From assembly GCF_036885605.1 (NCBI RefSeq), contig NZ_CP142523.1, positions 1 to 64,000 of the forward strand: a DNA stretch of 64,000 nt, read 5' to 3'. Every line of letters begins with the position of its first letter. The stretch's first letter is position 1. The notes beneath the pieces are model-generated. The model saw only the letters and a program-made list of their open reading frames with translations. It was not told where the DNA came from and ran no database searches. The stretch is from Janthinobacterium sp. TB1-E2. Its GTDB lineage: Bacteria; Pseudomonadota; Gammaproteobacteria; Burkholderiales; Burkholderiaceae_D. Positions 9,446 to 57,860 of this stretch are shown here, piece by piece. The translations under genes and the position numbers were made by a program.

Positions 9446-9562
9446 AACGCCTAAAAAACCGTAGCGAGCGGCAGCAAGTTGTGGCCGAGACGCGCAACTG
9501 TGCTAGAGCACAGTGAGCATCGCAGGCCGCAAATTGCGACGCGCAGTAGGTTTTTAGGTGTT
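9446..9562 (-). repeat. Dispersed palindromic repeat, copy A
   Basis: Read on the minus strand it matches the family pattern: AACACCTAAAAACC, TACTGCGCG, a centre GATGCTCAC with a GTGC/GCAC hairpin, then CCGCTCGCTACG and GGTTTTTTAGGCGTT. The two ends are inverted repeats of each other. It fills the gap between two convergent genes, ending two bases before the chemoreceptor stop codon. Related copies lie at 24530, 31459, 39883 and 57745. Confidence 0.9.
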
Positions 9563-9563
9563 G

Positions 9564-11294
9564 TTAGAACTCTTCCCACTCTCCGCTATTGTCCGCTGCA
9601 GGCTTGGCCGGACGCGGTTTTGCGGCAGCGACAGGTGCTGCCGCGGCGCGGGTTGGCGCCAGGCGCAGCGCCGGGCGTTTCAAGGCCGTGCTGGCGGCGG
9701 CCACGACAGGCTTGCGCAAGGCAGGCTTGGCGGCAGGACCACTATGGTTGGCATCGAGCTTGAAGATGCTGACCATTTCGGCCAGCGCCGCCGCCTGTTC
9801 CTGCATGGCTTCCGAGGCAGCTGCCGCTTCTTCCACCAGGGCCGCATTCTGTTGCGTCACGGTATCCATTTCTGCCACGGCCTGGTTGATCTGGCCGATG
9901 CCCAGTTCCTGCTCGCGGCCGGCGGCGCTGATTTCGCCCATGATGTCCGTCACGCGGCGGATGCTGGCCACGATCTCGTCCATCGTCGTGCCCGTCTGGC
10001 TGACCAGTTCGCTGCCGGCGCCTACGTTCTGTACCGACGCTTCGATCAGCAGCTTGATGTCCTTGGCGGCGCTGGCCGAGCGGTGCGCCAGGTTGCGCAC
10101 TTCGGTGGCGACAACGGCAAAGCCGCGGCCTTGCTCGCCGGCACGCGCCGCTTCCACGGCTGCATTCAAGGCCAGGATGTTCGTCTGAAAGGCGATGCCG
10201 TCGATCACGCCGATGATGTCGGCGATCTTTTTCGACGATTCGCTGATGGTACCCATGGTATCGACCACTTGCGCCACCAATGCGCCGCCTTTTACCGCCA
10301 CATCCGATGCCGACACGGCCAGCTGGTTCGCCTGGCGCGCATTGTCGGAATTCTGCTTGACGGTCGAGGTCAGCTCTTCCAGCGACGAGGCCGTTTCTTC
10401 CAGGCTCGACGCTTGCTGCTCCGTGCGGCTGGACAGGTCCAGGTTGCCCGAAGCGATTTCATTGCTGGCCGTGGCGATGGCGCCGCTGCCGTCGCGCACG
10501 CCGCGCACAGTGGTCGACAGGCGTTCCTGCATCTTCTGCAAGCCCGTCAGCAAGGCGCCCATCTCGTCGTTGCGCGTGATGACGATGTCGTTGGCCAGAT
10601 TGCCGTCGGAAATGGCGCCGAAATGGCGCAGGGCCTGGTCCAGCGGGCCGAAGATGGCGCGCAGCAGCAAGATGCTGGAAATAATCGTCAGTAAGGCGCC
10701 CACCAGCACGCCGCCGATGGCCATGGCCAACTGGGTGCGATAGCTGGACTGGCTTTCCGCATACATGCGGGCAGCCGAAGTGGCCTGATACTGCGTCAAT
10801 GTTTCAGCGGCCTGGTCCAGGGTGCGGTACAGCGGCGTCAGTCCCGTCATCATCAAACCGTCCGCTTGTGCGACGTTGCCTTCACGCAAAGCCTTGCTCA
10901 TGACCAGCAAGCCGTTGCTCATGTAATCGCTGCGCTTCTTGTCCATGTCGTCGGACAGGCGCTTTTCATCCGCGCTTTGCGGCAAGGCCAAATACACCTT
11001 CCAGGACTTGTTCGACGCTTCCATGAATTGTTCGGCACGGGCCAGGATATCCTTGGCGTCGGCTGCATCGGGATGCACCATCACGCGGTCCATTGTGAAC
11101 CGGGCGCGGCCCAGCAGAATCTGCGATTCGCCGATCGCTTGCGTCGATGCCAGCTGATTGCTGTAGACCTCGTTGAGGCTGTTGTTGGCCGATTTCAGGC
11201 TGATGATACTCATGACGCCGAGCACGGCGATCAGCAAGCCCAGCACACTCATGGTGGCAATCAGGCGCATCTTTATTGTTATGTTCGACAGCAT
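9564..11294 (-). CDS. Methyl-accepting chemotaxis protein (4-helix-bundle sensor)
   Basis: Transmembrane chemoreceptor controlling the CheA/CheW kinase. The 576 residues show TM1 (about 8-30), a helical periplasmic sensor of the four-helix-bundle type (about 31-188), TM2 (about 190-212), a HAMP domain, then a long signalling coiled coil with the conserved hairpin tip [21 protein letters not shown]. The Ala/Pro-rich tail ends in EWEEF, an acidic/aromatic pentapeptide like those that tether CheR/CheB in other receptors. AAGGAA lies seven bases before the ATG at 11294. No che genes are nearby, so it must feed a chemotaxis cluster elsewhere. The stop codon touches repeat copy A. Confidence 0.95.
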   Translation of the reverse strand: MLSNITIKMRLIATMSVLGLLIAVLGVMSIISLKSANNSLNEVYSNQLASTQAIGESQILLGRARFTMDRVMVHPDAADAKDILARAEQFMEASNKSWKVYLALPQSADEKRLSDDMDKKRSDYMSNGLLVMSKALREGNVAQADGLMMTGLTPLYRTLDQAAETLTQYQATSAARMYAESQSSYRTQLAMAIGGVLVGALLTIISSILLLRAIFGPLDQALRHFGAISDGNLANDIVITRNDEMGALLTGLQKMQERLSTTVRGVRDGSGAIATASNEIASGNLDLSSRTEQQASSLEETASSLEELTSTVKQNSDNARQANQLAVSASDVAVKGGALVAQVVDTMGTISESSKKIADIIGVIDGIAFQTNILALNAAVEAARAGEQGRGFAVVATEVRNLAHRSASAAKDIKLLIEASVQNVGAGSELVSQTGTTMDEIVASIRRVTDIMGEISAAGREQELGIGQINQAVAEMDTVTQQNAALVEEAAAASEAMQEQAAALAEMVSIFKLDANHSGPAAKPALRKPVVAAASTALKRPALRLAPTRAAAAPVAAAKPRPAKPAADNSGEWEEF

Positions 11295-11695
11295 GCAATT
11301 TTCCTTGGTAGGGGCGCAACCATGCCTGCGCCCGCCAAACGGGATAGCAGCAAACGCCTGATGGGCGGGTCACGTGAATTGTTCAGGACAGATGGATACG
11401 GCGTGTGCGGCGGCAGGGGGGAAGGCGGCCCGCGCATATCGTCAGGAGTGCAAGACAGGGCAACGAGGTCGAGGTTTCCTGTACTTTTATTTCCTGACTG
11501 CAAGATACAGGGAAAGATTACTAGTAGCAACATCCAGCATGGATTTTCACGCTTTGTAACAAGTAGATGATGTTTTTTGCGCAGAACTGGCATTCCGCAA
11601 TCGTGCGCGGTCGCGTGGGAATGCCAGTTATGTTAATAGACGGTTTCTGCAATCGAGCATGGTCAGCATTTGCCAGCCACCGTCCGGCGTCGCCT
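11295..11695. other. 401-base gap without a recognised gene
   Basis: This stretch lies upstream of the chemoreceptor (start 11294, minus strand) and downstream of the MORN-like gene (stop 11696, minus strand). It should therefore hold the chemoreceptor promoter and any terminator for neither gene's start. Short open frames exist on both strands but none has a plausible ribosome site or protein-like composition. The only clear structure is the inverted repeat at 11585-11629. Confidence 0.5.
11585..11629. repeat. 12-bp perfect inverted repeat, intergenic
   Basis: AACTGGCATTCC (11585-11596) and GGAATGCCAGTT (11618-11629) are exact complements separated by 21 GC-rich bases. No T-run follows on either strand, so an operator or RNA hairpin is as likely as a terminator. 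It is about 290 bases upstream of the chemoreceptor start. Confidence 0.6.
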
Positions 11696-12610
11696 TTACG
11701 GCCCCTGTTTCACGTCATCGACATACAGGCCGCCACCGCCAGGTTCCACCCACTGGCCCTGCTTCTTGCCGTTGACATAGTTGCCCTGCCATTGCACCAC
11801 GCCGTCGATGCGCCGTTCGCTGGGGCCGTTCAAGCGGTCTTTCACAAACGTGTCGTAGCCGGTGAAACTGTGCATGTCCACTTCGCGCCATTCGTCCACG
11901 CCCGGGCTCACTTCCCAGCGGCCTGTGCGCTGGCCACGCTGCATCATGCCCGTCGTCGTTTCATCGCCGCTTTCATACGTCCACGGCCCTTCGGCCTTGT
12001 CATCGACAAAGGCGCCAAACGAGCGGATGGTGTTCGGCTCCTCGTAGTGCCACTGCCCCGTGCGCTTGCCCTGTGCATACTGGCCACGGGCATACACGCT
12101 GCCCACGCAGCAACTCACGTTGTACTCGATGAATAGCCCATCCTGGCTGGCGGCAAAGCGCTGCGGCTGCGTTTCCCATGTGATCCACTTGATGTGATAG
12201 CTGGGTGCGCGGTTCCCTTTCCAGCCCTTGCCCAGCAGATACGTGACCGTGAGGAAATGGCCATCCTTTTCCACGAAGGTTTTTTTATAGGCAAACGCCG
12301 GCGCATCGGCCGGCTTGCCGGGCAATAAATCGCCATCGATATTGAAATAGCCGACCAGCTTGCCATGGCCATGCTCGATGGCGTCGAACTCGGCCACGCC
12401 CGTGGGTGCGTAGGCTATGCTGTCGTCGATCTGCGGCACATGGGCCAGCGCCGTGCGCACCTGCGCCTCGTCCATGGTTTTCGCGCCGCGCTCGACGGTG
12501 CTGGCGGTGGCCGTCGGTTTACCCTCGTAGAACCGCGCCGCCTGCGCTGACGCCAAACCTCCCAGCGCCAGCAGCGCCACCATCGTGCTCATCCAAAATG
12601 TTTGCCGCAT
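11696..12610 (-). CDS. Exported MORN-repeat-like protein
   Basis: A 304-residue protein with a signal peptide (MRQTFWMSTMVALLALGGLASAQAA). The C-terminal half has four or more units of MORN-like form, such as GQYAQGKRTGQWHYEE, GAFVDDKAEGPWTYES, GMMQRGQRTGRWEV and GNYVNGKKQGQWVE. Such repeats form beta hairpins and are often scaffolding or membrane-associated. The N-terminal half (about 30-150) is unrecognised. The ATG at 12610 is preferred over the GTG at 12616 because TGGAG lies five bases before it. It probably acts in the periplasm; the role is unknown. It is downstream of the EamA transporter on the same strand, 41 bases away, and could be cotranscribed. Confidence 0.75.
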   Translation of the reverse strand: MRQTFWMSTMVALLALGGLASAQAARFYEGKPTATASTVERGAKTMDEAQVRTALAHVPQIDDSIAYAPTGVAEFDAIEHGHGKLVGYFNIDGDLLPGKPADAPAFAYKKTFVEKDGHFLTVTYLLGKGWKGNRAPSYHIKWITWETQPQRFAASQDGLFIEYNVSCCVGSVYARGQYAQGKRTGQWHYEEPNTIRSFGAFVDDKAEGPWTYESGDETTTGMMQRGQRTGRWEVSPGVDEWREVDMHSFTGYDTFVKDRLNGPSERRIDGVVQWQGNYVNGKKQGQWVEPGGGGLYVDDVKQGP

Positions 12611-12651
12611 GCCCACTCCACTGCCTGAAAACCGCCATTATGCATGGCCGT

Positions 12652-13566
12652 TCAGGCAAGACCGGACGCGCGAGGACGCCGGCCGAACAGGGGGCGCTGT
12701 ACCGTCTGCGCCAGCAGCACGCCCAGCAGCGAGATGCCGCCGCCGACCAAGTGGTACACATGCATGCTTTCATGCAACCAGACGATGGCCAGCAAGGCCG
12801 TCAGCAGGGGCAGCAGGTTGACGTAGATGCTGCAGCGGTTCGGTCCCAGCAGTTTGACGCCTTCGATCCACAGATAGGACAGCACGATGGACGAACCGAT
12901 GCCCGCATAGCCGATCAAGGGCAAGGTGGTGGCGTCCAGCCTGGCGCTGCCGGGTGGCAAGAGCAGGAAGAACGGCAGCATGCACGCCAGGGCTGCCAGC
13001 GCCTGGCAATAAATGGCTTGCCACGCGGGAACGGACAACCGCCAGCGGCGCAGCAGCACGCCGTACAGGGCGAAGCTCAGGGAAGCGAGCAGCATCAGCG
13101 CATCGCCCGCATGCACGCCTTGGTGCAGCAAGGCCAGCACGTCGCCACGCCCCACCAGGTACAGCAAGCCGCCAAACGACAGCACGCCGCCGGCCGCCAT
13201 GCCGACCGTCAGGCGCTCGCCCAGCAGCAGCACGCTGAGCAGGGCCGTCATCAGAGGCGCCAGCGCCGTAACGATGGCCATATTCGTCGCCGTGGTGCTT
13301 TCCGCGGCGCGGTAGGACAAACTCTGGAACAGGGCCATCGACATCAGGCCGCACAGGGCCAGCTGCCACCAGTGGCGGCGGATGGCGGCGCGGTTGCGCC
13401 ACAGGGGGCGGACGATAAACGGTGTCATCACGAGCAAAACCAGCACCAGGCGGTAAAAAGTGATGGCCGTGGGAGCGATGCTGGACGCGGCCAGCTTGGA
13501 CACGACGACGTTGCCGGCCCACAGCAACATGGCCAAAAACGGATACAGATAGGCGCGTACAGGCAT
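12652..13566 (-). CDS. EamA/DMT-superfamily transporter
   Basis: Inner-membrane metabolite or drug exporter with two EamA repeats of about five helices each (about 5-140 and 150-290), 304 residues, as usual for the 10-TM DMT group. The repeat signatures are visible: LLWAGNVVVSKLAASSIAPTAITFYR in the first and SFALYGVLLRRW ... YLWIEGVKLLGPNRCSIYVNLLPLLTALLAIVWL in the second. The substrate cannot be told from sequence. It is divergent from the AraC-type regulator at 13668, with 101 bases between the starts, which suggests local control of the exporter by that regulator (inference). Confidence 0.92.
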   Translation of the reverse strand: MPVRAYLYPFLAMLLWAGNVVVSKLAASSIAPTAITFYRLVLVLLVMTPFIVRPLWRNRAAIRRHWWQLALCGLMSMALFQSLSYRAAESTTATNMAIVTALAPLMTALLSVLLLGERLTVGMAAGGVLSFGGLLYLVGRGDVLALLHQGVHAGDALMLLASLSFALYGVLLRRWRLSVPAWQAIYCQALAALACMLPFFLLLPPGSARLDATTLPLIGYAGIGSSIVLSYLWIEGVKLLGPNRCSIYVNLLPLLTALLAIVWLHESMHVYHLVGGGISLLGVLLAQTVQRPLFGRRPRASGLA

Positions 13567-13667
13567 GCGAAACTCCGGGAATAGTTACGGGAAACCATCA
13601 TGCCGCAGGCGCGTCGCGCCTTCTCGCGCTAAGATGTCCGAACCTATCGCAAAACTGACCTTATTTG

Positions 13668-14456
13668 ATGGATTGTTCCTCTCCGGCCTTTCAGGAATTG
13701 CTGCCCGTCACGGCGCGTGCCATGGCGCTGGCCGTCGACTATGCGCACGGCCACGTGATTTCCGCGCACCGCCACACGCATGCGCAATTGCTGTACGCCA
13801 TCGAGGGCGTGATGACCATCGAAGCGCAAGGCGGGCGCTGGGTAGTGCCGCCCACGCGCGGCGTGTGGCTGCAGCCCGGCATCGCGCACAAGGTGCGCAT
13901 GAGCGGCGCCGTCAAGATGCGCACGGTGTTCGTGAACTGCGCCAATTCGCCATTGCTGCCTGGTCACAGCTGCGTGCTCGACATCAGTCCTTTGCTGCGG
14001 CAATTGATCGTGGCGGCCGTCGACATCGCGCCCGATTTCACGGAAGGCAGCCGCGACTGGCATCTGCTGCAATTGCTGTTGCATGAGCTCGACAGCCTGC
14101 CCGTGCTGCCCCTGTATCTGCCGCTGCCCATGGATGCGCGCCTGCGCGGCATTTGCGCACGGCTGATGGAACAACCGGGTGAACAGCAGACGGTGGCGCA
14201 CTGGGCGCAGGAACTGGCGATCACCGAGCGCAGCCTGCACCGGCTGTTCCAGAAACAGACGGGCATGCGCTTTGGCCAGTGGCGCCAGCAGGCGCGATTG
14301 CTGCGGGCACTCGAGCAATTGGCGCAAGGCGTCAAGGTCATCGACGTGGCCATGGACAACGGCTACACGAGTCAAAGCGCGTTCACGGCCATGTTTAAAA
14401 AACATTTCGGCACCACGCCCACCGCGTTTTACCAGGCTAAAGTCATTGCGGCGTAA
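13668..14456 (+). CDS. AraC-family transcriptional regulator
   Basis: 262 residues from the ATG at 13668. The N-terminal cupin-like sensing domain (about 15-110) contains HRHTHAQLLYAIEGVMTIEA and the following PPTRGVWLQPGIAHKV. The C-terminal double helix-turn-helix (about 160-260) has AITERSLHRLFQKQTGMRFGQWRQQ and DVAMDNGYTSQSAFTAMFKKHFGTTP. A TTG directly before the ATG is the only alternative start; no ribosome site is evident. The divergent EamA exporter is its likely target. A related regulator of the same layout lies at 32090-32932. Confidence 0.92.
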   Translation: MDCSSPAFQELLPVTARAMALAVDYAHGHVISAHRHTHAQLLYAIEGVMTIEAQGGRWVVPPTRGVWLQPGIAHKVRMSGAVKMRTVFVNCANSPLLPGHSCVLDISPLLRQLIVAAVDIAPDFTEGSRDWHLLQLLLHELDSLPVLPLYLPLPMDARLRGICARLMEQPGEQQTVAHWAQELAITERSLHRLFQKQTGMRFGQWRQQARLLRALEQLAQGVKVIDVAMDNGYTSQSAFTAMFKKHFGTTPTAFYQAKVIAA

Positions 14457-14574
14457 AAAAAATGCTGCTATGCATCAATAATCATGGGCGATTGGGAGCA
14501 GGCTTGTTATCATCGCAAGCCTTATCGCACCGCGCCCATCCTGGCAACGGTGTTGACCTCATCTCCACACCACC

Positions 14575-15174
14575 ATGACACAGAATTTCTTCCAGACATT
14601 TATCCTGCTCTTGCTCGTCACCGACCCGTTCGGCAACGTTTCCCTGTTCGTCAATGCCCTGAAACGGGTGCCCATCGAGCGGCGCTGGAAAGTCGTGGTG
14701 CGCGAGTGCATGATCGCCTTCGGCATCTTGCTGTTATTCATGTTCTTCGGCCGCCATTTCCTGAACGCCTTGCAATTGTCGGAAGTGGCGCTGCGCATCG
14801 GCGGCGGCGTGATTTTGTTCCTGATCGCCATGCGCATGGTGTTTCCGCAGCCAAACGCGGGCAATAGCGACCACGAGATGGGCGGCGAACCGTTCATCGT
14901 GCCGCTGGCCATCCCCGCGCTGGCCGGCCCGTCGGCGCTGGCCACCGTGCTGCTGTTTTCCTCGCATGAAATGAATGAAGTGATCGCCCACGTGGCGGGG
15001 CTGACGGCCGTGGCCGTCGTCTGGCTAGCCGTCTTCCTGTGCGCCGAACGCTTGCAGCGGGCGCTCGGTCCAAGGGTCATGACGGCATTCGAGCGTCTGA
15101 TGGGCTTGATCCTGACGGCCATGGCCATTGAGATGCTGCTGGCCGGCATACGCGCATTCCTGAAATCCGTTTAA
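14575..15174 (+). CDS. MarC family integral membrane protein
   Basis: 199 residues with six hydrophobic segments, the size and pattern of MarC/UPF0056 proteins. The family signature is present: a polar DPFGNVSLFVNAL motif near the N-terminus and PLAIPALAGPSALATVLLFS in the middle. Despite the historical name (multiple antibiotic resistance), the transport role of this family is unproven. The gene lies 118 bases after the AraC regulator and 31 bases before the DinB-fold gene on the same strand, so it could be cotranscribed with the latter. Confidence 0.9.
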   Translation: MTQNFFQTFILLLLVTDPFGNVSLFVNALKRVPIERRWKVVVRECMIAFGILLLFMFFGRHFLNALQLSEVALRIGGGVILFLIAMRMVFPQPNAGNSDHEMGGEPFIVPLAIPALAGPSALATVLLFSSHEMNEVIAHVAGLTAVAVVWLAVFLCAERLQRALGPRVMTAFERLMGLILTAMAIEMLLAGIRAFLKSV

Positions 15175-15205
15175 CATCAGCATTCATCCACTGAAGGAGT
15201 CCAGC

Positions 15206-18084: not shown

Positions 18085-18196
18085 GGCGTAGCCTTTCAAA
18101 TGATCAGGCTGCCAAGGTAAGGCAGGCGCGATCAAAGAAAAACAGGCTATAGTTTCTGTCTGTGCGGACGTTGGCATCCGCAATCAAAGGTAAAAA

Positions 18197-19087: not shown

Positions 19088-19214
19088 GCCCGCATCCGGC
19101 GCCGCGCTCGTTGTTTCCACACGACAACTTAGTCAAGTTGCTACCAGTTTTTCAGCTTTTCACGGACTTGATACAAGTTTTTGTATTGCAGTGCGGAATT
19201 TTGAGGAACAATTA

Positions 19215-19256: not shown

Positions 19257-19295
19257 TCCGATGTTTTCCCTCACTTCCGCAATACGAAAGCAATC

Positions 19296-21075: not shown

Positions 21076-21190
21076 CGTCTGCCAATACCACTTTTTTTTG
21101 CCGCAAAGCCCGCGCAATAGACAAAAGTGCAAAACGTGCAGCGCGCATACGCTTTACAATCCTCGCTCGCTTTACAAAATATTGGTCATC

Positions 21191-24100
21191 ATGAATCAGG
21201 CAGAACAGCAGCGCCTCCTGGCTATCCTGGAGTATTGGCACAAGATCGAATTTTTTATCCCGTTTGACCTGAATCAAATCACGGACGTTGAAGACCAGTC
21301 CACCGTGCGTCTCCTGCACCGCGAACAGCTGGCGCAATTGCCGCCGCAGTTCGCCACGCAATGGCAAGTACCGTCCGACCGCGAGATCGACGGCTTTTCA
21401 TTGTTCCTCGGCGTGTTCGACAAGGCGGAAATCAACAAGGCTTGTCCGCCAGCCACTGGCCCGGAAAACATTGCCGAAACAGAAAAAACAGAACTGCTGG
21501 GACGCTCGTGCTTTGCCCGCCTCAATCTCAATGCGCTGGGCGAGCCGCAGTTCGATCCGGTGTCCGTGTCAACCTTGCCGTGGGCGCTGGGCCGCGCCCG
21601 CACGCCGGACTGGTCTGGCCTGAGCCTGGACGCCTTCAGCGACAGCCAGCTGGCGCTGGAAGACAGCCTGCGCAACTTCGCGGCCAGCCGCACGCCACAG
21701 CAAGTGACGGACGAGGCCGGCAATGTCTCGTCTCCCCTGTCCGGTATGGAAATCGCGGCCCTGGCCGACCTGTTGCGCGACTGGGCCGGCTTCCACCCGT
21801 CCGCCGGCCAGCCGCTGGCCGTGCTGGAATTGCGTACGCGCAAGAAACGCGCAACGGCCACGGAAACCGATGCGCTTGAATCCAGCCAGAACCGCAGCCT
21901 GGACTTTGGCGACGCGGTGGAACCGTCGATCGATATCCTCAACAGTTTTTACCTCGATGACCTGGAACAGATCATCCGTGCCTTGCGTGGCGGCAAGCTG
22001 CCCGCGACGGTCGCCGCCTATCTGACGCCGCTGGCGCAGGATGAGCGCATCGACCTGTACAGCCCGGCCGGACGCCAGGCGCTGGCCGCCATGCTCAACC
22101 CGGCCAATATGAACCGGGGACACTGGCTGGAAGACGCCAGCTACGCCATGAGCCTGATGCAGCAGTTCGCCATCCACGGCGCGCGCACGGGTTTGCACGA
22201 GCGGGGCATCTTTTCCGTCAATGGCCCACCGGGCACGGGCAAGACGACCTTGCTGCGTGAATTGTTTGCCGACAACATCGTGCGCCGCGCCAGCGTGCTG
22301 TCCTGCCTGGACCGCGCGGGCGACGCCTTCATCGGCAAGGTGGCCGTCGCCTTTGAAGGCGTGCGCGACCCGATTACCATCGCCCGCTTGCGCCCGGAAC
22401 TGACGGGCTTTGAAATGGTCGTCGCTTCATCGAATAACGCGGCCGTGGAAAACATTTCCGGCGACCTGCCAAAACCCAAGCAGCTGGGCAAGGAATGGGC
22501 GCGCACGCGCTACTTTGAAAGCGTGGCGCGCCGGGTCGTGGCGGACGGCAATGGCGCCAACCGTGCGCTGAGTGAGGCGGAAGCGCCATGGGGCTTGATG
22601 TCCTGCGCGCTGGGCAATAGCGCGAACCGCCGCCGCTTCGTCAGCAATTTTTATGACGACGACTGGGACAAGACCACGGCGCGCAAGACACCGAATGCGC
22701 AAAATATCCGCCAGTGGCTGGCCAGCCACCAGGGCGTGAGCTTCGCCCAGGCGGCGCGCGAATTCCGCGAGACGGAACACGTGGTGGAAAAGGCGCTGGC
22801 CGAGCACGCCCAGTACGCGGCCCTGTGGCAAGCCGTGGGCACGTGCACGGAAGCCGAATTCATCCACAGCAGCCAGCAGGCGCTGATTGCGGCTGAGCAA
22901 GAAATGGATGCGGCGAATGGCGCCCTGTCCGACGCGCTGGCGCAGCAAGACACCCTGCTCGCCAGCAAAAAGGAATTGCTGGAAGAAGAACGCCTGGTGG
23001 CGCTGACACAGCCCGGTTTCTTTGCCCGCCTGTTCCGCACGGCACCGGCGCGCACCTACAAGGACGCCGTCGTCGCCAACGCCGAGGCGCAGCGCCAGGC
23101 TGCGCGCGACGTGTCCGCCATCAAGCTGCTGCTGAAGGGCGAGCTGGAGCCGCGCTGCGAACGCGCGCGCAACAGCCTGCACATCGCCCTGCGCACGGCG
23201 CAATCGCGCCAGCGCGAATGGGATGACAGCACGGAACTGCTGCGCCGCGCGCGCATGCGCTTCCCCACCATCGCCGCGCCGGCGACCCTGGACGAGCTCG
23301 ATGGCGACGCGCTGCAAATTGGCGGCCTGTGGCATGAACCGGCCCTGGCGCGCCTGCGCTCGCGCCTGTTTGCCAAGGCCCTGGCCCTGCATGAAGCATG
23401 GCTGGCGGAAGTGGCAAAGAAAGGCGGACCCGGCTTTGGCGGCAACTTGCTGGCCGTGTCGAAATTGCTGAAAAACAAGCGCGCCTACGACCAGTCGCAC
23501 ATCGCCATGGTCTGGCACAGCCTGTTCATGGTGGTGCCCGTCGTGTCGACGACGTTTGCCTCGTTCGCGCGCCAGTTCCAGGGCATGGGTGCCGAATCGC
23601 TGGGCTGGCTGTTCATCGACGAGGCGGGCCAGGCCGTGCCGCAAGCGGCGCTGGGCAGCCTGTGGCGTGCCAAGCGCGCCGTCGTCGTGGGCGACCCGCT
23701 GCAGATCGAGCCCGTGTTCACGGTGCCGGGCCGCCTCGTGCAAACCTTGTCCGCCCTGTCGCCGCACACGCAGGATGGCAGTTACGCGCCAACTTCCGTT
23801 TCCGTGCAGACTCTGGCGGACAAGGCCAACCGCTATGGTGCGACTGTCGGCGCCAATAGCGCGCAGCCCCTGTGGATCGGCAGCCCCCTGCGCGTGCACC
23901 GCCGCTGCGTGGAACCGATGTTTTCGCTGGCCAATAGCATCGCCTACGAAGACAAGATGGTCTATGGGCTGGCTGAGCGCACGCCGCCGGCCGGCGCGCG
24001 CGGACTCACGCGTGGCCCCAGCTGCTGGATCGACGCCGCCGGTCCTGTCAGCTACAAGCAGGTCGTGCCCGTGCAACTCGATTTCGTGCTGGAGGTGCTG

Positions 24101-24529
24101 CTGAAACTGTACCGCCGCGACGGCAAGCTGCCCGACATGTATGTGATCACGCCATTCAAGGCCGTGCGCAACGAATTGCGTTCGCGCATCGTCGACATGG
24201 ACTGGGACCGCCGCCTCGGCTATGGCAAGGCGCCGACGGCGCGCGAATTGCGCCAGTGGAGCAGCCAGATGGTGGGCACCGTGCATACGTTCCAGGGCAA
24301 GGAGCAAAGCGTGGTGATGCTGGTTCTCGGCGCCGATGACAGCACGGCGGGTGCGGCCCAGTGGGCGGCGGCCACGCCGAACTTGCTCAATGTCGCCCTC
24401 ACGCGCGCGCAGCACCATGTGTACATCGTCGGCAACCCGCTGCTGTGGGGCCAATTGCCGCATTTCGCGCCCGCGTGTGCGCAGTTGCCGCATACGGGCA
24501 TGCATGAGTTTTTGGTGGAGATGGGGTAG
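21191..24529 (+). CDS. Large UPF1/DNA2-like superfamily 1 helicase
   Basis: 1112 residues from the ATG at 21191 (MNQAEQQRLL). The motor motifs are all present: Walker A GPPGTGKT at about 346-353, Walker B DEAGQ at 810-814, GDPLQIEPVF, TVHTFQGKEQSVVML and NVALTRAQHH near the C-terminus. This marks the SF1B UPF1/DNA2/NAM7 group. An unusual feature is the roughly 460 residues between motifs I and II, including helical, charged, coiled-coil-like segments (about 520-760). The first 340 residues are an unrecognised domain. No nuclease domain follows the helicase. It probably acts on RNA or DNA in the cytoplasm; it stands alone. The stop codon abuts repeat copy B. Confidence 0.88.
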   Translation: MNQAEQQRLLAILEYWHKIEFFIPFDLNQITDVEDQSTVRLLHREQLAQLPPQFATQWQVPSDREIDGFSLFLGVFDKAEINKACPPATGPENIAETEKTELLGRSCFARLNLNALGEPQFDPVSVSTLPWALGRARTPDWSGLSLDAFSDSQLALEDSLRNFAASRTPQQVTDEAGNVSSPLSGMEIAALADLLRDWAGFHPSAGQPLAVLELRTRKKRATATETDALESSQNRSLDFGDAVEPSIDILNSFYLDDLEQIIRALRGGKLPATVAAYLTPLAQDERIDLYSPAGRQALAAMLNPANMNRGHWLEDASYAMSLMQQFAIHGARTGLHERGIFSVNGPPGTGKTTLLRELFADNIVRRASVLSCLDRAGDAFIGKVAVAFEGVRDPITIARLRPELTGFEMVVASSNNAAVENISGDLPKPKQLGKEWARTRYFESVARRVVADGNGANRALSEAEAPWGLMSCALGNSANRRRFVSNFYDDDWDKTTARKTPNAQNIRQWLASHQGVSFAQAAREFRETEHVVEKALAEHAQYAALWQAVGTCTEAEFIHSSQQALIAAEQEMDAANGALSDALAQQDTLLASKKELLEEERLVALTQPGFFARLFRTAPARTYKDAVVANAEAQRQAARDVSAIKLLLKGELEPRCERARNSLHIALRTAQSRQREWDDSTELLRRARMRFPTIAAPATLDELDGDALQIGGLWHEPALARLRSRLFAKALALHEAWLAEVAKKGGPGFGGNLLAVSKLLKNKRAYDQSHIAMVWHSLFMVVPVVSTTFASFARQFQGMGAESLGWLFIDEAGQAVPQAALGSLWRAKRAVVVGDPLQIEPVFTVPGRLVQTLSALSPHTQDGSYAPTSVSVQTLADKANRYGATVGANSAQPLWIGSPLRVHRRCVEPMFSLANSIAYEDKMVYGLAERTPPAGARGLTRGPSCWIDAAGPVSYKQVVPVQLDFVLEVLLKLYRRDGKLPDMYVITPFKAVRNELRSRIVDMDWDRRLGYGKAPTARELRQWSSQMVGTVHTFQGKEQSVVMLVLGADDSTAGAAQWAAATPNLLNVALTRAQHHVYIVGNPLLWGQLPHFAPACAQLPHTGMHEFLVEMG

Positions 24530-24649
24530 AACACCTGATCAAACCTACTGCGCGTCGCGATTTGCCGTCTCCGATGCTCACTGTGCATTCGCACAGCTCC
24601 GCTTCTCGACAGCAACTCTCTTCCGCTCGCTACGGTTTTATCAGGCGTT
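24530..24649 (+). repeat. Dispersed palindromic repeat, copy B
   Basis: It begins AACACCTGATCAAACC, continues TACTGCGCG, has the centre GATGCTCAC with a CTGTGC/GCACAG hairpin, then CCGCTCGCTACG and ends GGTTTTATCAGGCGTT. It lies between the helicase and the convergent histidine kinase. Its right end runs into the kinase gene, supplying the last two codons and stop of that gene. Confidence 0.9.
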
Positions 24650-26050
24650 CTCAGCGGGGAAAACGAGGGTAAACGTCGTGGCGGCCGCATCCGACGCCAC
24701 GGTCGCGCTGCCACCATGCAACTGCATGATGGCCGTAACGATGGCCAAGCCCAGGCCTGTGGAAGCGGCCGAGTCGCTGCGGGCCGGGTCGGCGCGGTAG
24801 AAGCGCTCGAACAAATGGGGCAAGTGGCGCGCGGGGATGGCGGGGCCGAGGTTGCTCACGCTTAGTTCTACACCCTCGTTCGTCGCATGCGAACGCAGCA
24901 GTATCGTGCTGCCCGGCGCCGCGTGGCGTATCGCGTTCGACAGCAAATTACCGAGCGCACGGCGCAGCAGTTGCGGCTCGGCCGTCACCGTGCCGCTGCC
25001 GTGGCAAGCCAGCGCCAGCTCGCGCTCTTCGGCCAGTCCCTCAAAGAAATCGGCCAGGCGCAAAAACTCGTCCTGCACGGGCAAGACTTGCTTGACGAGC
25101 ACCATTTCATCCTGCTGCGCACGGGCCAAAAACAGCATGCTGTCGATCATGCGCGACAGCCGTTCCAGCTCTTCCACATTCGACGACACCAGCTGTTCAT
25201 ACTCGTGCGCGCTGCGCGGGCGGGCCAGCATCACCTGGCTTTGCCCCAGCAGATTGGTGACGGGCGTGCGGAATTCATGCGCCAGGTCGGCGGAAAATTG
25301 CGACAGCCGCGCATAGCCTTCCTGCAGCCGCGCCAGCATGGCGTTCAGGGCCTGGATCAGCGGCAAGAGTTCCGTCGGCGCGCCGCGCGCATCGAGCTGC
25401 TGCTCCAGCTTGCCCGGCCGCACGAGGGCCGCATGGGCGGCGATATTGCGCAGCGGCCGCAATCCCCGCAGCAGCATCAAGCTCGCCAACAGTGCCGCCA
25501 CCAGCGCGCTGACGGCCACGGAGACGACGATTTGCCAACGGTAGGCCGCAAACATGGCCGTGCGGTCGCCGTAGACCCGGGCGACGGAAATGTCCGCCAT
25601 CTGCGCCGGGTCGCCGATGCGCGCGCTGGCCGCCACGACCCTGGCCGGATAGCCGTCGCGGCTGGTCCAGCTGACGATGTCGCTGTTCGTCACGGGCGCA
25701 TCGACGGCCACGGGCACAGGATGCGCCACCGCCTCGCCGTTCGGGTTGACATCGATCAAACGCGTGCCATCGGCGCGCACGATGCGCACCAGGGAATTTT
25801 CTTGGCCGCTCATGGTGTCGCGGAAATACTGGGGCCGCTCGCGGATGATGTCGAGAGTGCCCGCATTGCCCAGCAGCTGCTGGATCTGCCGCAGTTTACC
25901 CAGCAATAATATGTCGTCGCGGCGCTCGATTTCCGCCACAAAAGAGCGGTATAAATGCATGCCCAGCCCGGCCGACACGAGCGCCACGATCAGCACGAAG
26001 ACAAGCGTGACGCGCAGGGTCAACGAGCGGCGAAGTTGCGCCAGCTTCAT
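24641..26050 (-). CDS. Sensor histidine kinase, heavy-metal/HprS-like
   Basis: 469-residue inner-membrane kinase: TM1 about 13-33, periplasmic sensor about 34-172, TM2 about 173-195, HAMP, a HisKA domain with the phosphoacceptor His258 ([12 protein letters not shown]) and a HATPase domain with [10 protein letters not shown] and GLGLAIV. The layout matches the CusS/IrlS/HprS group. It overlaps its response regulator by four bases (ATGA), so they form one operon. The divergent genes (GlcG/HbpS-like protein and hydroxyisourate hydrolase) suggest an oxidative-stress role like E. coli HprS rather than metal sensing (inference). Its last codons lie in repeat copy B. Confidence 0.92.
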
Positions 26051-31091: not shown

Positions 31092-31457
31092 ATGACCAAG
31101 AATGAAGCCATGAAACGCATCAACGACCGCCTGGGCAAACCCACCTTGACGGACAAGAACACGCATTTTGCCAGCGTCGCCAGCTATGGCACGGACGAAG
31201 GCTGGTGGCTGAAGATCCCCTTCCTGACCTTCAAGCAGGAATTGCATTTTATTCTCAACAATGAGAAAACGAAAAGTTTCCAGCACCTGAAAATCGGCGC
31301 CAACCAGATCCTCAGCCCCGGCATGAAGTTTCGCAGCACGGGCGGCGCGGCCGACGCCTTCATGTCGGCCTCGGCGCCGAAGCGCCTGGTCGACTTGCTC
31401 GACGGCGGCAGCAAGTACAATTTTACAAAACACTTTATCAACGACTATCGCTATTAG
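31092..31457 (+). CDS. Hypothetical protein, 121 aa
   Basis: Not recognised. A soluble, basic protein (MTKNEAMKRINDRLGKPTL) with aromatic-rich DEGWWLKIPFLTFKQELHFIL in the first half and a C-terminal KYNFTKHFINDYRY. It has no signal peptide. Start at the first ATG; a second in-frame ATG follows at codon 7. It is followed directly by the shortened repeat copy C. Confidence 0.65.
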   Translation: MTKNEAMKRINDRLGKPTLTDKNTHFASVASYGTDEGWWLKIPFLTFKQELHFILNNEKTKSFQHLKIGANQILSPGMKFRSTGGAADAFMSASAPKRLVDLLDGGSKYNFTKHFINDYRY

Positions 31458-31458
31458 G

Positions 31459-31501
31459 AACACCTGACCAAACCTGCTGCGCGTCGGTTTTGTCAGGCGT
31501 T
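31459..31501 (+). repeat. Dispersed palindromic repeat, internally deleted copy C
   Basis: It keeps only the ends of the family: AACACCTGACCAAACC, then TGCTGCGCGTC, then GGTTTTGTCAGGCGTT. The whole centre found in the other copies is missing. The result is a compact hairpin of about 16 bp. It sits between convergent genes, one base after the stop codon of the gene at 31092-31457. Confidence 0.88.
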
Positions 31502-38888: not shown

Positions 38889-39881
38889 ATGAAAAAAGTC
38901 CTGTTTACCCTGCTGACCCTCGGCGCAGCCTCCACCGGCGCCATGGCCCAATCGAGCGTGACCATGTATGGCGTGGCTGACGCCGGCCTGGTGTTCGACA
39001 AGGATGCGTCCGGAGACCGCCTGAACCGCGTCGCTTCCGGCGTCGCTTCGGGCTCGCGCATCGGCTTCAAGGGCAAGGAAGACCTCGGTGGTGGCCTGGC
39101 CGCTACCTTCGTGCTGGAAAGCGGTTTCAATATCGATACCGGTACCTCGGGCCAGGGCGGCCGGCTGTTCGGCCGCCAGGCGTATGTGGGCCTGACCGGC
39201 AGCGCCGGCGCCCTCACCCTGGGCCGCCAATATACGCCGTACTACCTGGCCCTGCGCGACGTGGCCGATCCGTTTGTCATCGGCCTGGCCGGCACGGCAT
39301 CGAACATTATGGCGACGAATTATCGCATCGACAACATGGTGCAATACAGCACGCCGACCTGGAGCAAGCTGTCGGCCGACCTGGCGTATGGCTTTGGCGA
39401 AGTGGCCGGCGACAATGCGAAAAACCGCAGCATGGGCGGCGCCGTGCATTACATCGACGGTCCGCTGAACGTGACCCTGACACACCACCGCCAGGAAAAT
39501 GCGCTGGCGACCCAGCAAACGCGCAACACCTTGCTGGCCACGCGCTACGACTTTGGCGTGGTGCAAGGTAACTTCGGCTACGCCGACAACCGCGCCCTCG
39601 ACGACAGCAAGAGCAATGACATCCTCGTCGGCTTCAGCGCCCCGTTCGGCGCCACCAAGCTGGTCGCGTCGTACATCCGCCACAACGACAAGAGCAATGC
39701 CAACCGTGACGCCCAGCAGTGGGCCATCGGCGCCTTCTATGCACTGTCCAAGCGCAGCGACCTGTACACCGGTTACGGCCACATCAGCAACAAGAACGGC
39801 GCTACCTACAAGGTTGGCAATGCCACCGACGATGGCACCGGCAACAGCGGTTTCAACCTCGGCATGCGCCACACGTTCTAA
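38889..39881 (+). CDS. Gram-negative (betaproteobacterial) general porin
   Basis: 330-residue trimeric outer-membrane porin. A signal peptide (MKKVLFTLLTLGAASTGAMAQ) is followed by the opening SSVTMYGVADAGLVFDKD and repeated amphipathic strands such as SRIGFKGKEDLGGGLAATFVLESGF, all typical of the betaproteobacterial porin family; the protein ends in RHTF with the terminal Phe recognised by the BAM complex. Because it lies between dctA and dctBD it may admit dicarboxylates (inference from position). A leader of 80 bases separates it from the dctA terminator. Confidence 0.95.
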   Translation: MKKVLFTLLTLGAASTGAMAQSSVTMYGVADAGLVFDKDASGDRLNRVASGVASGSRIGFKGKEDLGGGLAATFVLESGFNIDTGTSGQGGRLFGRQAYVGLTGSAGALTLGRQYTPYYLALRDVADPFVIGLAGTASNIMATNYRIDNMVQYSTPTWSKLSADLAYGFGEVAGDNAKNRSMGGAVHYIDGPLNVTLTHHRQENALATQQTRNTLLATRYDFGVVQGNFGYADNRALDDSKSNDILVGFSAPFGATKLVASYIRHNDKSNANRDAQQWAIGAFYALSKRSDLYTGYGHISNKNGATYKVGNATDDGTGNSGFNLGMRHTF

Positions 39882-39882: not shown

Positions 39883-40002
39883 GACGTCGGCCAAAATCTA
39901 CTGCGCGGCGCGCTTTGCGGCCGGCGATGCTCACCGTACTAAAGTACGGTTGCGCTTCTCGGCCACAAATCACTGCCGCTCGCTACGATTTTGTCGGACG
40001 TT
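39883..40002 (+). repeat. Dispersed palindromic repeat, copy D
   Basis: It begins GGACGTCGGCCAAAATC, TACTGCGCGGCGCGC, has the centre GATGCTCACCGTAC with a CCGTAC/GTACGG hairpin, then CCGCTCGCTACG and ends GATTTTGTCGGACGTT. Its ends pair as AAAATC with GATTTT where other copies have AAACC with GGTTT, a compensatory change. It is the only copy not between convergent genes; it sits between the porin and dctB. Confidence 0.9.
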
Positions 40003-44091: not shown

Positions 44092-44096
44092 AGAGC

Positions 44097-46429: not shown

Positions 46430-46435
46430 TCCAGC

Positions 46436-48109: not shown

Positions 48110-48118
48110 GGGGCCGCC

Positions 48119-51700: not shown

Positions 51701-51705
51701 TCGAT

Positions 51706-51743
51706 GGGGGTCTGACGGGGACGCCGATTCCCCGCCAGCCCCC
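51706..51743. terminator. Strong hairpin between convergent genes
   Basis: GGGGG (51706-51710), CTG (51712-51714) and CGGGGA (51716-51721) pair with TCCCCG (51729-51734), CAG (51736-51738) and CCCCC (51739-51743). It lies between the fusion gene (stop 51700) and the SDR (stop 51755), so it probably ends both transcripts, although no T-run is seen. Confidence 0.5.
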
Positions 51744-51754
51744 CAATCACGCCA

Positions 51755-52534: not shown

Positions 52535-52767
52535 GCTGCGTTCCTTTCAGAGTAGTGAGAAGAGACGCTTCAGCCTACCTGAATTTCGTCTTTTTCCACG
52601 TATTGAAACGTGCGCGCCCGGAAAAAGCGCACAGGTCAAGAAAGGAGGAAAAAACGCACCGGCACACGCTATACGAGCGCTGCCGTACTGGCCAATGGCG
52701 GCATCTGGCGTAACATGGCCGGCATCGCCGGCGAGCGCGCTGGCACCACGTTCAAGAGGAAGTCCCC

Positions 52768-53184
52768 ATGCCGCATCGCCATCTGCCCATCCGCGCCAGC
52801 CTGCTGCTGGCGGCCCTCGTTTTCACCATGCCCGCCTGGAGCGCCGACCCGGTCCACAAGGAAACAGTGGAACTGACGGCAGGAAAAACCGTGCACAGCG
52901 TGAAAGGCAAGATCAAGGGCTACGCCACGGCCGAATATACGGTGACAGGCAAGGCCGGCCAGACTCTCAGTGTCACGCTCAAGACCAACCAACCGTCGAA
53001 TTACTTCAACATCCGCCAGCCAGGCCAGGATGAAGCCCTGTTCATCGGTTCATCCGGCGGCAACAGTTACCAGGCAAAACTGCCGGCCGATGGCGAGTAC
53101 ACGGTACAGGTTTACCTGATGCGCAACGCGGCGCGCAGGAATGCGGTGGCGGCATACACGCTCGATATCGGCTTGCGCGATTAA
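52768..53184 (+). CDS. Exported protein resembling a g-type lysozyme inhibitor (PliG)
   Basis: 138 residues with a signal peptide (ending PAWSAD). The mature part (about 35-138) reads VKGKIKGYATAEYTVTGKAGQTLSV ... LPADGEYTVQVYLMRNAARRNAVAAYTLDI. E. coli PliG has the same pattern (GEIKGYDYDTYTF ... LPASGKYELRVLQTRNDARKNKTKKYNVDI), with the RNxARxN tract in the same place. Such periplasmic inhibitors block host goose-type lysozymes. This is by eye only; similar proteins are often annotated as hypothetical. Its 3' end overlaps the DUF1203 gene by four bases. Confidence 0.65.
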   Translation: MPHRHLPIRASLLLAALVFTMPAWSADPVHKETVELTAGKTVHSVKGKIKGYATAEYTVTGKAGQTLSVTLKTNQPSNYFNIRQPGQDEALFIGSSGGNSYQAKLPADGEYTVQVYLMRNAARRNAVAAYTLDIGLRD

Positions 53185-53663
53185 ACAAGGGAGCTGCCAA
53201 CACGGTCGATACGGCCCGCGTAACAGCCCCGCATGGCATTATGAACATGAATATAACTGACGTCCGCATTGGCAAATAATTGTGCAATGAGGGCTTCCAC
53301 GGCAGTGCCGTCCACCACGTCGGCATCGAGCATCATGCCATCGGCAGCATAGGCGCGCAGCGACAACAGGCGCCGCCGCATCGATTCCGGCACCTGGTTG
53401 ACGGCATCGTACGCTTGCGTGGCGCCCTCGCGGACAAAAATGGCGTGGCAAGCCCGGTAAGGCGTCATGGCGGGCTGGCACACATGATTCAATAACAGCA
53501 CGGTCTCGCCCAGTTCGGCGTCCATCAGCGTTACACGGTCAGGAAATCCGGGGTGTTGGTCGACCACCTGGCGCCGCATGCCGAGCGCCGTTAACTCGGC
53601 ATCGGACAAGGAAAAATAGGGCAGAAAAGGTTCGGGCGACAGCCCCGTAATACGAAAATCCAT
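53181..53663 (-). CDS. DUF1203 domain protein
   Basis: 160 residues of the DUF1203 type: the opening MDFRITGLSPEPFLPYFSLSDAELTALGMRRQVVDQHPGFPDRV and the end HVHNAMRGCYAGRIDRVG fit that family. No biochemical role is known. It has no signal peptide. GGAGA precedes the ATG at 53663. It overlaps the PliG-like gene tail to tail and is upstream of the ssb terminator. Confidence 0.8.
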   Translation of the reverse strand: MDFRITGLSPEPFLPYFSLSDAELTALGMRRQVVDQHPGFPDRVTLMDAELGETVLLLNHVCQPAMTPYRACHAIFVREGATQAYDAVNQVPESMRRRLLSLRAYAADGMMLDADVVDGTAVEALIAQLFANADVSYIHVHNAMRGCYAGRIDRVGSSLV

Positions 53664-53780
53664 ACTGTTCTCCGGCGTCGTCAAAACCACCATCAGACCA
53701 GCATCGGGACGGCGCCGCCATCCACTTCTTGCTATGGAATGTGAGAATGCGCCCCGGATCGCCTACTACCCCGTGCGCAT

Positions 53781-53812
53781 AAAAAAAGCCTGCTTCACGG
53801 AGGAAGCAGGCT
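53781..53812 (-). terminator. Intrinsic terminator after ssb
   Basis: AGCCTGCTTC (53787-53796) and GAAGCAGGCT (53803-53812) form a perfect 10-bp stem; read on the minus strand the T-run is the complement of A residues 53781-53787. It lies 43 bases past the ssb stop codon. Confidence 0.95.
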
Positions 53813-53854
53813 CTTTATCGGCAGTGTCTGACGGCAGGCCTCAGAACAGCGTGC

Positions 53855-54370
53855 TTAAAATGGGATGTCGTCATCCATATCCGAGAAGTTCGGCGCTGGC
53901 TTCGGTGCCGGGCGTGGCGCCGGTGCCGGAGCTGGACGCGGGGCTGGCGCCTGGCGCGGGGCCGGGGCGTCGTAGCCGCCGCCACCGCCACCACCGTAGC
54001 TGTCATCGCCACCGCCGGCGTCGCCGCCCATGCCGGAACGGCCGCCCAGCATTTGCATCTGTTCCGCGATGATGTCGGTTGCGTACTTCTCGACGCCGTC
54101 CTTGTCCGTGTATTTACGGGTTTGCAGACGGCCTTCGACGTAGACGGACGAGCCTTTTTTCAGGTATTGGCCGACGATTTCCGCCAGACGGCCGAAGAAC
54201 GAGATACGGTGCCACTCTGTCAATTCTTTTTGTTCGCCCGTGTTGCGGTCCTTCGATTTGTACGAAGTGGCCACGGCGATGTTGGCGATCGCGTCGCCGC
54301 TAGGCATGTAGCGGATTTCCGGGTCACGGCCCAGATTGCCGACGATGATGACTTTGTTGACTGATGCCAT
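53855..54370 (-). CDS. ssb: Single-stranded DNA-binding protein
   Basis: Binds single-stranded DNA in replication, recombination and repair. 171 residues: an N-terminal OB fold (about 1-110; [36 protein letters not shown]), a Gly-rich and Pro/Ala-rich flexible linker (about 112-160), and the conserved acidic tip DMDDDIPF that contacts partner proteins. It is divergent from uvrA, with a LexA box in between, as in E. coli. Confidence 0.97.
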
Positions 54371-54417
54371 GAATAACTCCTGATGAACTGCAGCGGGAGC
54401 CGGTGTCCCGCGCGTTA

Positions 54418-54433
54418 GTTTAGTGTACTAAAC
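54418..54433. promoter_or_regulatory. Palindrome upstream of ssb
   Basis: GTTTAGT and ACTAAAC are exact complements separated by GT, 48 bases upstream of the ssb start codon. This may be part of the ssb promoter or an operator. Confidence 0.4.
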
Positions 54434-54540
54434 GAGGATTATAAGCGACCACGCGGCGCAAAGCACCCGCTTTCTGGCGGACGCCCTCTCCCGTGCGGCG
54501 GCACGTTTTTTTCACGGCAGGTGAAAACAAGAAACTTGAA

Positions 54541-54560
54541 TACTGGTATTATATACAGTA
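54541..54560. promoter_or_regulatory. LexA (SOS) box between ssb and uvrA
   Basis: TACTGGTATTATATACAGTA has the CTG-N10-CAG signature and matches the E. coli consensus TACTGTATATATATACAGTA at 16 of 20 positions. It lies 192 bases upstream of uvrA and 171 upstream of ssb, in the same divergent arrangement as in E. coli. Damage induction of one or both genes is expected. Confidence 0.85.
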
Positions 54561-54751
54561 TTCAAACGTCAGTACGCATCTGCATCAAACTTTGTCAGGG
54601 CACGTTCGCCCGGCGGCGCAATCCGCCCATGGACGCCTCAGGCATGCAGAGCAAAACCCGGCTATAGTTACAGGTTGACCCGTTGTGGCTCCTCATCCGC
54701 ACCCAGGCACAATGCGCCGGCCGCACCACTCACTGAAAGCAAGGCAATCAC

Positions 54752-57601
<2,850 letters not shown>

Positions 57602-57626
57602 CGACGGCAGCGCAATAAAAAACGGC

Positions 57627-57663
57627 GCGGATTGCTCATGCAATCCGCCCCGTTTCTCTTTTT
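57627..57663 (+). terminator. Intrinsic terminator after uvrA
   Basis: GCGGATTGC (57627-57635), TCAT loop, GCAATCCGC (57640-57648), then CCCGTTTCTCTTTTTG. Twenty-six bases after the uvrA stop codon. Confidence 0.85.
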
Positions 57664-57700
57664 GATAGCACCCCAGTCATTGCCGGCGTGTCATTTATCT

Positions 57701-57728
57701 CACGCCAGTCTTTGCTGGCGTGTTTCTC
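57701..57728 (+). terminator. Second hairpin after uvrA
   Basis: CACGCCAG (57701-57708) and CTGGCGTG (57715-57722) with a six-base loop, followed by TTTCTCCC. A tandem back-up terminator for uvrA is the simplest reading. Confidence 0.6.
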
Positions 57729-57744
57729 CCCCACTACAACTCTC

Positions 57745-57860
57745 AACACCTGACAAGCTACTGCGCGGCGCGCTTTGCGGCCTGCGATGCTCACCGTGCT
57801 TCAGCACGGTTGCGCTTCTTAGCCACAAATCACTGCCGCTCGCTACGCTTGTCAGATGCC
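57745..57860 (+). repeat. Dispersed palindromic repeat, copy E
   Basis: It begins AACACCTGACAAGC, TACTGCGCGGCGCGC, has the centre GATGCTCACCGTGC with a CCGTGC/GCACGG hairpin, then CCGCTCGCTACG and GCTTGTCAGATG. The arms pair AAGC with GCTT, again a compensatory change. It is between convergent uvrA and pckG, 18 bases before the pckG stop codon. It is highly similar to copy D through the central part. Confidence 0.9.

What the first reader, a model, noticed from the sequence alone, without database searches (positions are those of the whole stretch)
9446..57860. Family of five dispersed palindromic elements with compensatory arm changes
Copies at 9446-9562 (minus), 24530-24649, 31459-31501, 39883-40002 and 57745-57860 share a pattern: end AACACCTGA-xx-AAACC, TACTGCGCG, centre GATGCTCAC with a small GC hairpin, CCGCTCGCTACG and the complementary end GGTTT-TCAGGCGTT. 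Arm variants are compensatory: AAACC/GGTTT, AAAATC/GATTTT, AAGC/GCTT, AAAAACC/GGTTTTTT; the central hairpin varies the same way (GTGC/GCAC versus GTAC/GTAC). So folding, not only sequence, appears to be kept. Four of five lie between convergent gene ends, which suggests bidirectional terminator or decay-protection roles, or insertion of a non-autonomous mobile element there. Not a known named family to my recognition.
Basis: partly seen in the sequence, partly recalled or inferred. Interest (0 to 1): 0.78.

Follow-up and report, generated by a model that had tools for sequence, protein, structure and literature searches.

The report
Mobile hairpin repeats at gene ends
The window carries copies of a small repeated DNA hairpin that spreads through bacterial genomes and often settles right behind the stop codons of genes; its middle is conserved across many bacteria while its two arms differ from copy to copy yet still match each other.

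Summary
In detail: four full copies (116-120 bp) and one 43-bp internally deleted copy. The genome (genus Janthinobacterium) holds 47 copies with a core; 34 of 37 genus genomes searched hold at least one. A conserved 90-nt core is enclosed by arms that vary between copies but match within a copy (-16.4 versus -8.6 kcal/mol swapped, 0 of 2000 permutations).
Whole elements, arms included, are missing at many orthologous sites, so they disperse. The left arm starts directly behind the upstream stop codon at 73 of 80 sites with a stop called 12-160 nt away, 29.9 expected. In a related genus 32 of 49 copies have exact 4-bp flanking duplications, 1.0 expected; elsewhere that signal is weak.
Best reading: a MITE-like family inserting at gene 3' ends, with related cores in 22 of 159 genera of the order. 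No mobilising enzyme was found. Both-sided changes exceed independence, but G-U intermediates are not favoured and cores exchange independently of arms, so selection for RNA folding is only partly supported. RNA function is untested.

The parts
9446..9562 (-). full element; core 9460-9549; begins 1 nt behind the stop codon (TAA) of the chemotaxis-receptor gene 9564-11294 (-)
   Evidence: whole element absent at the orthologous site in L119, L122 and L125, where that gene's stop codon stands at the same place
24530..24649 (+). full element; core 24545-24634; directly behind the TAG stop of the helicase gene 21098-24529 (+); the convergent histidine kinase ORF 24641-26050 (-) overlaps its right end
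31459..31501 (+). internally deleted copy: both arms and CTGCTGCGCGTCG remain, core lost; 1 nt behind the TAG of ORF 31092-31457
   Evidence: the orthologous site in L218 holds a full copy
39883..40002 (+). full element; core 39898-39987; 1 nt behind the TAA stop of the porin gene 38889-39881 (+); next gene is same-strand
57745..57860 (+). full element; core 57758-57847; in the intergenic space after uvrA (ends 57601) and before the convergent PEPCK gene 57878-59911 (-)
   Evidence: among 30 orthologous loci (own included): 2 full, 10 shortened hairpins, 18 without any palindrome

Best explanation
These are copies of a MITE-like, non-autonomous mobile element of about 120-130 bp that folds into one long hairpin. 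Shown: dispersal, presence/absence polymorphism, absence of both arms at empty sites, location right behind stop codons with fixed orientation, 4-bp duplications in one related genus, shortened forms. Inferred: an enzyme acting in trans cuts the target with a 4-5 bp stagger at or beside the stop codon (in the related genus g66, just behind transcription terminators) and the element is joined in, its left arm facing the gene; gene conversion between copies then exchanges cores while the site-specific arms stay. In the mRNA it forms a hairpin that begins almost at the stop codon, so a REP-like effect on ribosome release, mRNA decay or termination is likely as a by-product. The mobilising enzyme is unknown.
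For: 47 copies in the own genome and a wide range of copy number in the genus (0 to at least 67). Empty orthologous sites lacking the whole element with the stop codon in place. In one search, 30 orthologous loci covering 9 of 12 queried sites: 12 without an element, 15 with a full one, 3 shortened or altered (sorted partly by eye). Stop adjacency: of 152 elements, 89 have a coding stop 12-22 nt left of the core against 7 mirrored on the right. One copy per site, 120 sites: 73 at the stop, 10 with the stop inside the arm, 37 other or none called; of the 80 with a stop called 12-160 nt away, 73 are at it against 29.9 expected if every same-strand TAA/TAG/TGA up to the next gene (or 60 nt) were equally good. 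Other genera: 13 of 23 elements, plus 3 with the stop inside the arm, against 2 on the right. Identical 4-mers exactly flanking 32 of 49 g66 copies, expected 1.0, at the best of 324 offset pairs; allowing 27 offsets, 35 of 49 against 6.8, 0 of 300 shuffles. At 130 other sites 3-mer repeats 61 against 43.0, 0 of 300 shuffles; in L072 (GTAAG), L160 (TGAA), L221 (TAAA) and L225 (TTAA) the repeat holds the called stop codon. Short derivatives look joined at 2-4 nt of microhomology (by eye).
Against: No mobilising enzyme was found. None of the 3 Y1-transposase genes of the genome has an element within 1.5 kb (one search found one isolated 9-mer and one 7-mer only), and that family occurs in 40 of 40 genus genomes including G027, where no copy was found. 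23 of 23 exact right-half motifs of the own genome belong to known full copies. Duplications are clear only in g66, whose copies sit behind terminators rather than stop codons (stop called near only a minority of 49). For the other 130 sites 4-mers are not significant (16 against 11.3, 24 of 300 shuffles), 5-mers 7 against 3.2 (8 of 300), and some of the listed repeats lie inside the arms or hold a stop triplet where no gene stop was called. Arms that differ between copies are odd for a transposon whose ends must be recognised.
Confidence: 0.7

Rival explanations
1. A REP/REPIN-type repeat moved by a RAYT (Y1 transposase), with REP-like action on mRNA decay or on ribosomes at the stop codon.
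For: REPs lie close behind stop codons: an earlier study cited there put 260 of 496 E. coli REPs within 15 nt, the paper's own count is 446 of 4,072 (passages of PMC12306157); most convergent REPs within 20 bp of ORF ends and GTAG termini often giving the stop (section 15 of PMC3733652). REPINs show compensatory changes and hairpins (passages of PMC3116915). Y1_Tnp genes exist here.
Against: No unpaired GTAG or CGTC tag at a hairpin foot: CTAC and GACG/CGTC at the feet and arm ends are mostly paired (by inspection); Y1 genes of this genome have no element beside them; no agreement of Y1 presence with copy number; flanking 4-bp duplications in g66 do not fit IS200/IS605-type chemistry (recalled).
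Confidence: 0.14
2. Host regulatory hairpins (bidirectional terminators or 3' stabilisers) kept by selection for RNA folding, copied now and then.
For: Own-partner complementarity, excess of both-sided changes at the same site, position at gene ends with fixed orientation, AAAACC..GGTTTT flanks.
Against: Absent altogether at many orthologous sites; sometimes between closely spaced same-strand genes or beside a native terminator (by eye); one-sided changes give A-C (38) more often than G-U (18).
Confidence: 0.1
3. The covariation is produced by mutation, not selection: template switching inside the hairpin and gene conversion between copies rewrite both sides at once. (Compatible with the best explanation.)
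For: Tip pairs in 117 distinct cores: CG 66/TA 43/GC 3 with 2 wobble-type intermediates and 3 other mismatches; AT 69/GC 44 with 1 intermediate and 3 other mismatches; all four tip combinations common (46, 27, 18, 16). Copies share ancestry, so these are not independent events. L072 and L235 share site and arms but not core. Inserts in the tip with a complementary copy in the other arm (L156, L190, L192, L245). Cores differing at no more than 1 position outside the tip loop have outer-arm identity of only 0.61/0.67 (33 pairs).
Against: Conserved mismatches and the bulge in the core foot are not erased; one-sided changes do persist (109 cells).
Confidence: 0.35

Closest known systems
REP / REPIN elements (GTAG and CGTC super-families, RAYT-associated)
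   Same: Short palindromes, many copies, between convergent or tandem genes, close behind stop codons, sometimes supplying the stop (PMC3733652, PMC12306157).
   Different: 120-130 bp single long hairpin, no unpaired tag, no Y1 gene next to copies in the own genome, conserved centre with variable arms, 4-bp duplications in one genus.
Bacterial MITEs (for example Correia/NEMIS, ERIC; recalled, not compared by sequence here)
   Same: About 100-150 bp, terminal inverted repeats, target duplications, no genes, internally deleted forms.
   Different: Conservation is the other way round: core blocks shared by many genera, terminal arms different between genera and even between copies.
Integron attC sites (recalled)
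   Same: Imperfect palindromes directly behind a stop codon whose arms vary but stay complementary.
   Different: Mostly dispersed singly rather than in cassette arrays; no RYYYAAC/GTTRRRY ends by eye in the alignments; conserved centre.

Membership tests
REP (GTAG or CGTC) | unpaired GTAG/CGTC tetranucleotide at one foot of the hairpin | tested here: not met
   23 aligned copies and their consensus fold: the conserved CTAC/CTACG feet are mostly paired inside longer arms (by inspection)
REP (GTAG) | RAYT gene flanked by copies | tested here: not met
   three Y1_Tnp loci of the own genome searched for core motifs within 1.5 kb: only one isolated 9-mer and one 7-mer
REP | location close behind stop codons | tested here: met
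MITE | terminal inverted repeats inserted together with the body | tested here: met
   both arms absent at empty sites
MITE | target-site duplication (related genus g66) | tested here: met
   32 of 49 against 1.0 expected; 35 of 49 against 6.8 with free offsets
MITE (window genus and others) | target-site duplication | tested here: inconclusive
   130 sites: 3-mers 61 against 43.0 (0 of 300), 4-mers 16 against 11.3 (24 of 300), 5-mers 7 against 3.2 (8 of 300)
MITE | matching ends of an autonomous IS in the same genome | tested here: inconclusive
   none seen: 23 of 23 right-half hits are known full copies; the arm search (up to 3 mismatches) is little above its control (95 against 67), and of its hits outside full copies ten were read: 4 short hairpins, 2 left-end remnants, 4 unclear or chance
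Rfam RNA family | match to a curated model | tested here: not met
   none at gathering score in the window; only weak sub-threshold hits at copy 5
Transcription terminator | transcript ends at the element | not testable with these tools
   no RNA data

The most novel reading that the evidence does not exclude
The arms are not inherited but rewritten: at insertion (or in later repair) one arm is made and the other is copied from it by snap-back synthesis, so each copy carries its own matching pair of ends around a core that is kept or exchanged. The core, not the ends, would be what the unknown enzyme recognises, and the enzyme would be drawn to stop codons.
Probability: 0.12. Interest if true: 0.85.

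Novelty: new variant of a known kind. Interest (0 to 1): 0.56.

Why it matters
It is a widespread repeat family of Burkholderiales-type bacteria, undescribed as far as my limited literature searches show, with reversed conservation (fixed centre, variable but matched ends) and a near-exact preference for stop codons. It offers natural replicates for asking how compensatory changes arise in DNA hairpins, by selection or in one copying step, and what a hairpin directly behind a stop codon does to the gene.

Tried and rejected
RAYT as mobiliser: no neighbourhood or copy-number link. Insertion of a core into pre-existing palindromes: rejected because empty sites lack the arms. Autonomous element with the two halves apart: none in the own genome by exact motif (three relatives were searched too, but their hits were not compared with their full copies). 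Arm matches outside full copies: ten read, none leads to a recognised transposon, ORFs beside them not searched. A transposon hidden in g66 loci: nine loci read for long ORFs, no transposase recognised by eye, no family search. Plasmid and phage copies: none by blastn with copy 5. Viral contigs: 9 pattern hits, none with the rest of the element by eye.

Dropped rows: one search keeps 152 of 169 elements (350 bases of flank needed); keep one copy per orthologous cluster; the 80 sites leave out in-arm stops and sites with no stop called. One search found elements in 23 of 36 loci only. One search failed to retrieve the 15 same-site copies (pattern error); one search retrieved 9 of them and dropped pairs below 85% identity. 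Without that cut, (47 cluster pairs) gave 94 both-sided changes against 13.2 expected. Searches returned nothing because of faulty patterns and were redone. Copy numbers are capped at 67 and 10 scored candidates a genome. The random-position control for terminators includes coding sequence. Gene ends were called by my own codon-usage score; some were missed (the 9446 copy was scored as having no stop).
Full report
What is there. The window is the first 64 kb (from dnaA) of a 6.31-Mb single-contig genome. Its genus is Janthinobacterium by inference: same-genus genome G029 has a contig of 6,288,464 bases, the length of the Janthinobacterium sp. LM6 chromosome, and most named pattern hits are of that genus. 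The five reported places are real. Four are full elements of 116-120 bp; the one at 31459-31501 has lost the core. Each full copy folds into one long hairpin. The genome has 47 copies by a covariance model of the 98-nt centre, plus short core-less hairpins. Of 37 genus genomes including the own, 34 have at least one copy, with counts from 0 to at least 67, the number of candidates scored; two of the three without are incomplete assemblies.

Anatomy. From outside in: a variable arm (commonest form RACRCCTGACnAAAC in this genus), the near-invariant foot CTACTGCGCG / CCGCTCGCTACG with fixed mismatches and one bulge, a middle stem that differs between subfamilies, the conserved blocks GATGCTCAC and TGCGCTTCT, and a tip hairpin. 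In 117 distinct cores most foot pairs hardly vary while the middle and tip pairs change on both sides.

Arms match within a copy. For 47 own copies the left arm binds its own right arm better than those of other copies (-16.4 against -8.6 kcal/mol, 0 of 2000 permutations; own partner best in 21 of 47, within the top 5% in 29). Two copies (5727235 and 2526317) pair poorly. Over 168 elements the aligned arm positions are 2184 Watson-Crick, 67 G-T, 143 A-C, 172 other.

It moves. At the 57745 site, 30 orthologous loci show 2 full copies, 10 short hairpins and 18 without any palindrome. The 9446 element is wholly absent in three relatives, the stop codon standing at the same place. For 12 other own sites searched in 7 relatives, 30 loci covering 9 sites were read: 12 empty, 15 full, 3 shortened or altered. 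So both arms come in with the element. The short forms look like internal deletions joined at small repeats.

Where it inserts. Of 152 elements with enough flank, 89 have a same-strand coding stop 12-22 nt left of the core, against 7 on the mirrored right side; another 16 have the stop inside the arm, 13 farther off, 34 none called. One copy per site: 73 of 120 at the stop, 10 in the arm, 37 other. If every same-strand TAA, TAG or TGA between the stop and the next gene were equally good, 29.9 of the 80 sites with a stop called 12-160 nt away would be at the stop; 73 are. Gene ends are my own codon-usage calls, so single cases may be wrong. In other genera of the order, with unrelated arms, 13 of 23 elements are again at the stop and 3 in the arm, against 2 on the right.

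A related genus with many alike copies. The order scan found the core in 40 of 399 genomes and 22 of 159 genera, own included. In one of them (G108, unnamed, genus g66) the end sequence GGGARCTTCTAAAAACC occurs 113 plus 122 times with up to 2 mismatches (reversed control 2 and 0), so about 100 or more copies. Among 49 distinct copies from three g66 genomes, 32 have identical 4-mers directly at both ends (expected 1.0; best of 324 offset pairs, which is where the inverted repeats end). 28 of 49 have a CCCG[CTG] motif 16-32 nt outside one end against 9% of random positions; by eye this is the stem of intrinsic terminators such as GCCCGCCGAATGGCGGGTTT. At the other 130 sites the signal is present for 3-mers (61 against 43.0, 0 of 300), not significant for 4-mers (24 of 300) and borderline for 5-mers (8 of 300); in L072, L160, L221 and L225 the repeat holds the called stop codon, in L135, L157, L220, L239 and L246 a stop triplet with no gene stop called.

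Is folding selected? Same-site pairs of at least 85% identity (44 pairs): both sides changed 15 times against 2.5 expected, 14 still Watson-Crick; using one pair per site, 8 against 0.8. This supports joint change. But one-sided changes give G-T 18, A-C 38, other 53 (10, 18, 21 with one pair per site), the opposite of what sense-strand RNA folding would favour; a bottom-strand hairpin, as DNA or antisense RNA, would fit better, but the one-pair count is too small to decide. At the tip, finished pairs replace each other with almost no intermediates. Cores that differ at no more than one position outside the tip loop sit in arms only 0.61/0.67 alike, though each arm pair still matches (0.75 against 0.58 swapped; 33 pairs); in g66 arms of like cores are alike (0.83/0.89; 134 pairs). 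L072 and L235 share site and arms but not the core. So core and arms are inherited separately in Janthinobacterium, most simply by gene conversion of cores between copies.

Mobiliser. Not found. Y1 transposase genes of this genome have no element beside them, and the family does not follow copy number; no split-end autonomous element was seen in the own genome.

Known or new. I read the outline with abstract, passages and section 15 of PMC3733652 and passages of PMC12306157, PMC3116915, PMC6006769 and PMC6337395. REPs share the place behind stop codons but have unpaired tags and RAYT genes. Searches naming Janthinobacterium or Massilia with palindromic repeats or MITEs, repeats downstream of stop codons, MITEs with stop codons, and the core string GATGCTCACCGTAC gave no description of this family in the listings (open-licence papers only). 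I therefore call it a new variant of a known kind: a MITE-like, REP-like palindromic repeat with a conserved centre and variable matched ends.

Noticed in passing
G108 (loci L334-L340, L384-L403), G228, G259: A related version (cores 93 or 105 nt with feet) with GGGAACTTCT ends: 235 end matches in the 3.4-Mb genome G108, with 4-bp duplications, mostly behind intrinsic terminators.
   Followed up: partly
L343 (G190), L344 (G227): Three (L343) and two (L344) copies of the element in tandem, about 125-130 bp apart.
   Followed up: no
L156, L190, L192, L245: Extra GGCTCGGCGCC(C/A)CC-type insert in the tip together with a complementary GGGGGCGCCGAGCC in the other arm, as if copied by template switching; the same-site copies L158 and L003 lack it.
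   Followed up: no
L297, site of own copy 482621: Similar arms but a different perfect hairpin in place of the core (CCCAGTCGTC..GACGACTGGG).
   Followed up: no
L010, L062, L065, L199, L224: Five strains carry an element at one site behind a terminator, with clearly different but matched arms: repeated insertion or rewriting.
   Followed up: partly
L341, L355, L374, L380 (G259): Copies with one GGGAACTTCT arm and one TTGCCGGATCAATAAA-type arm, which is itself repeated in that genome.
   Followed up: partly
L406, L411 (own genome 2874339, 588091): Left arm alone, without core or matching right arm; remnants or ends of something else.
   Followed up: partly
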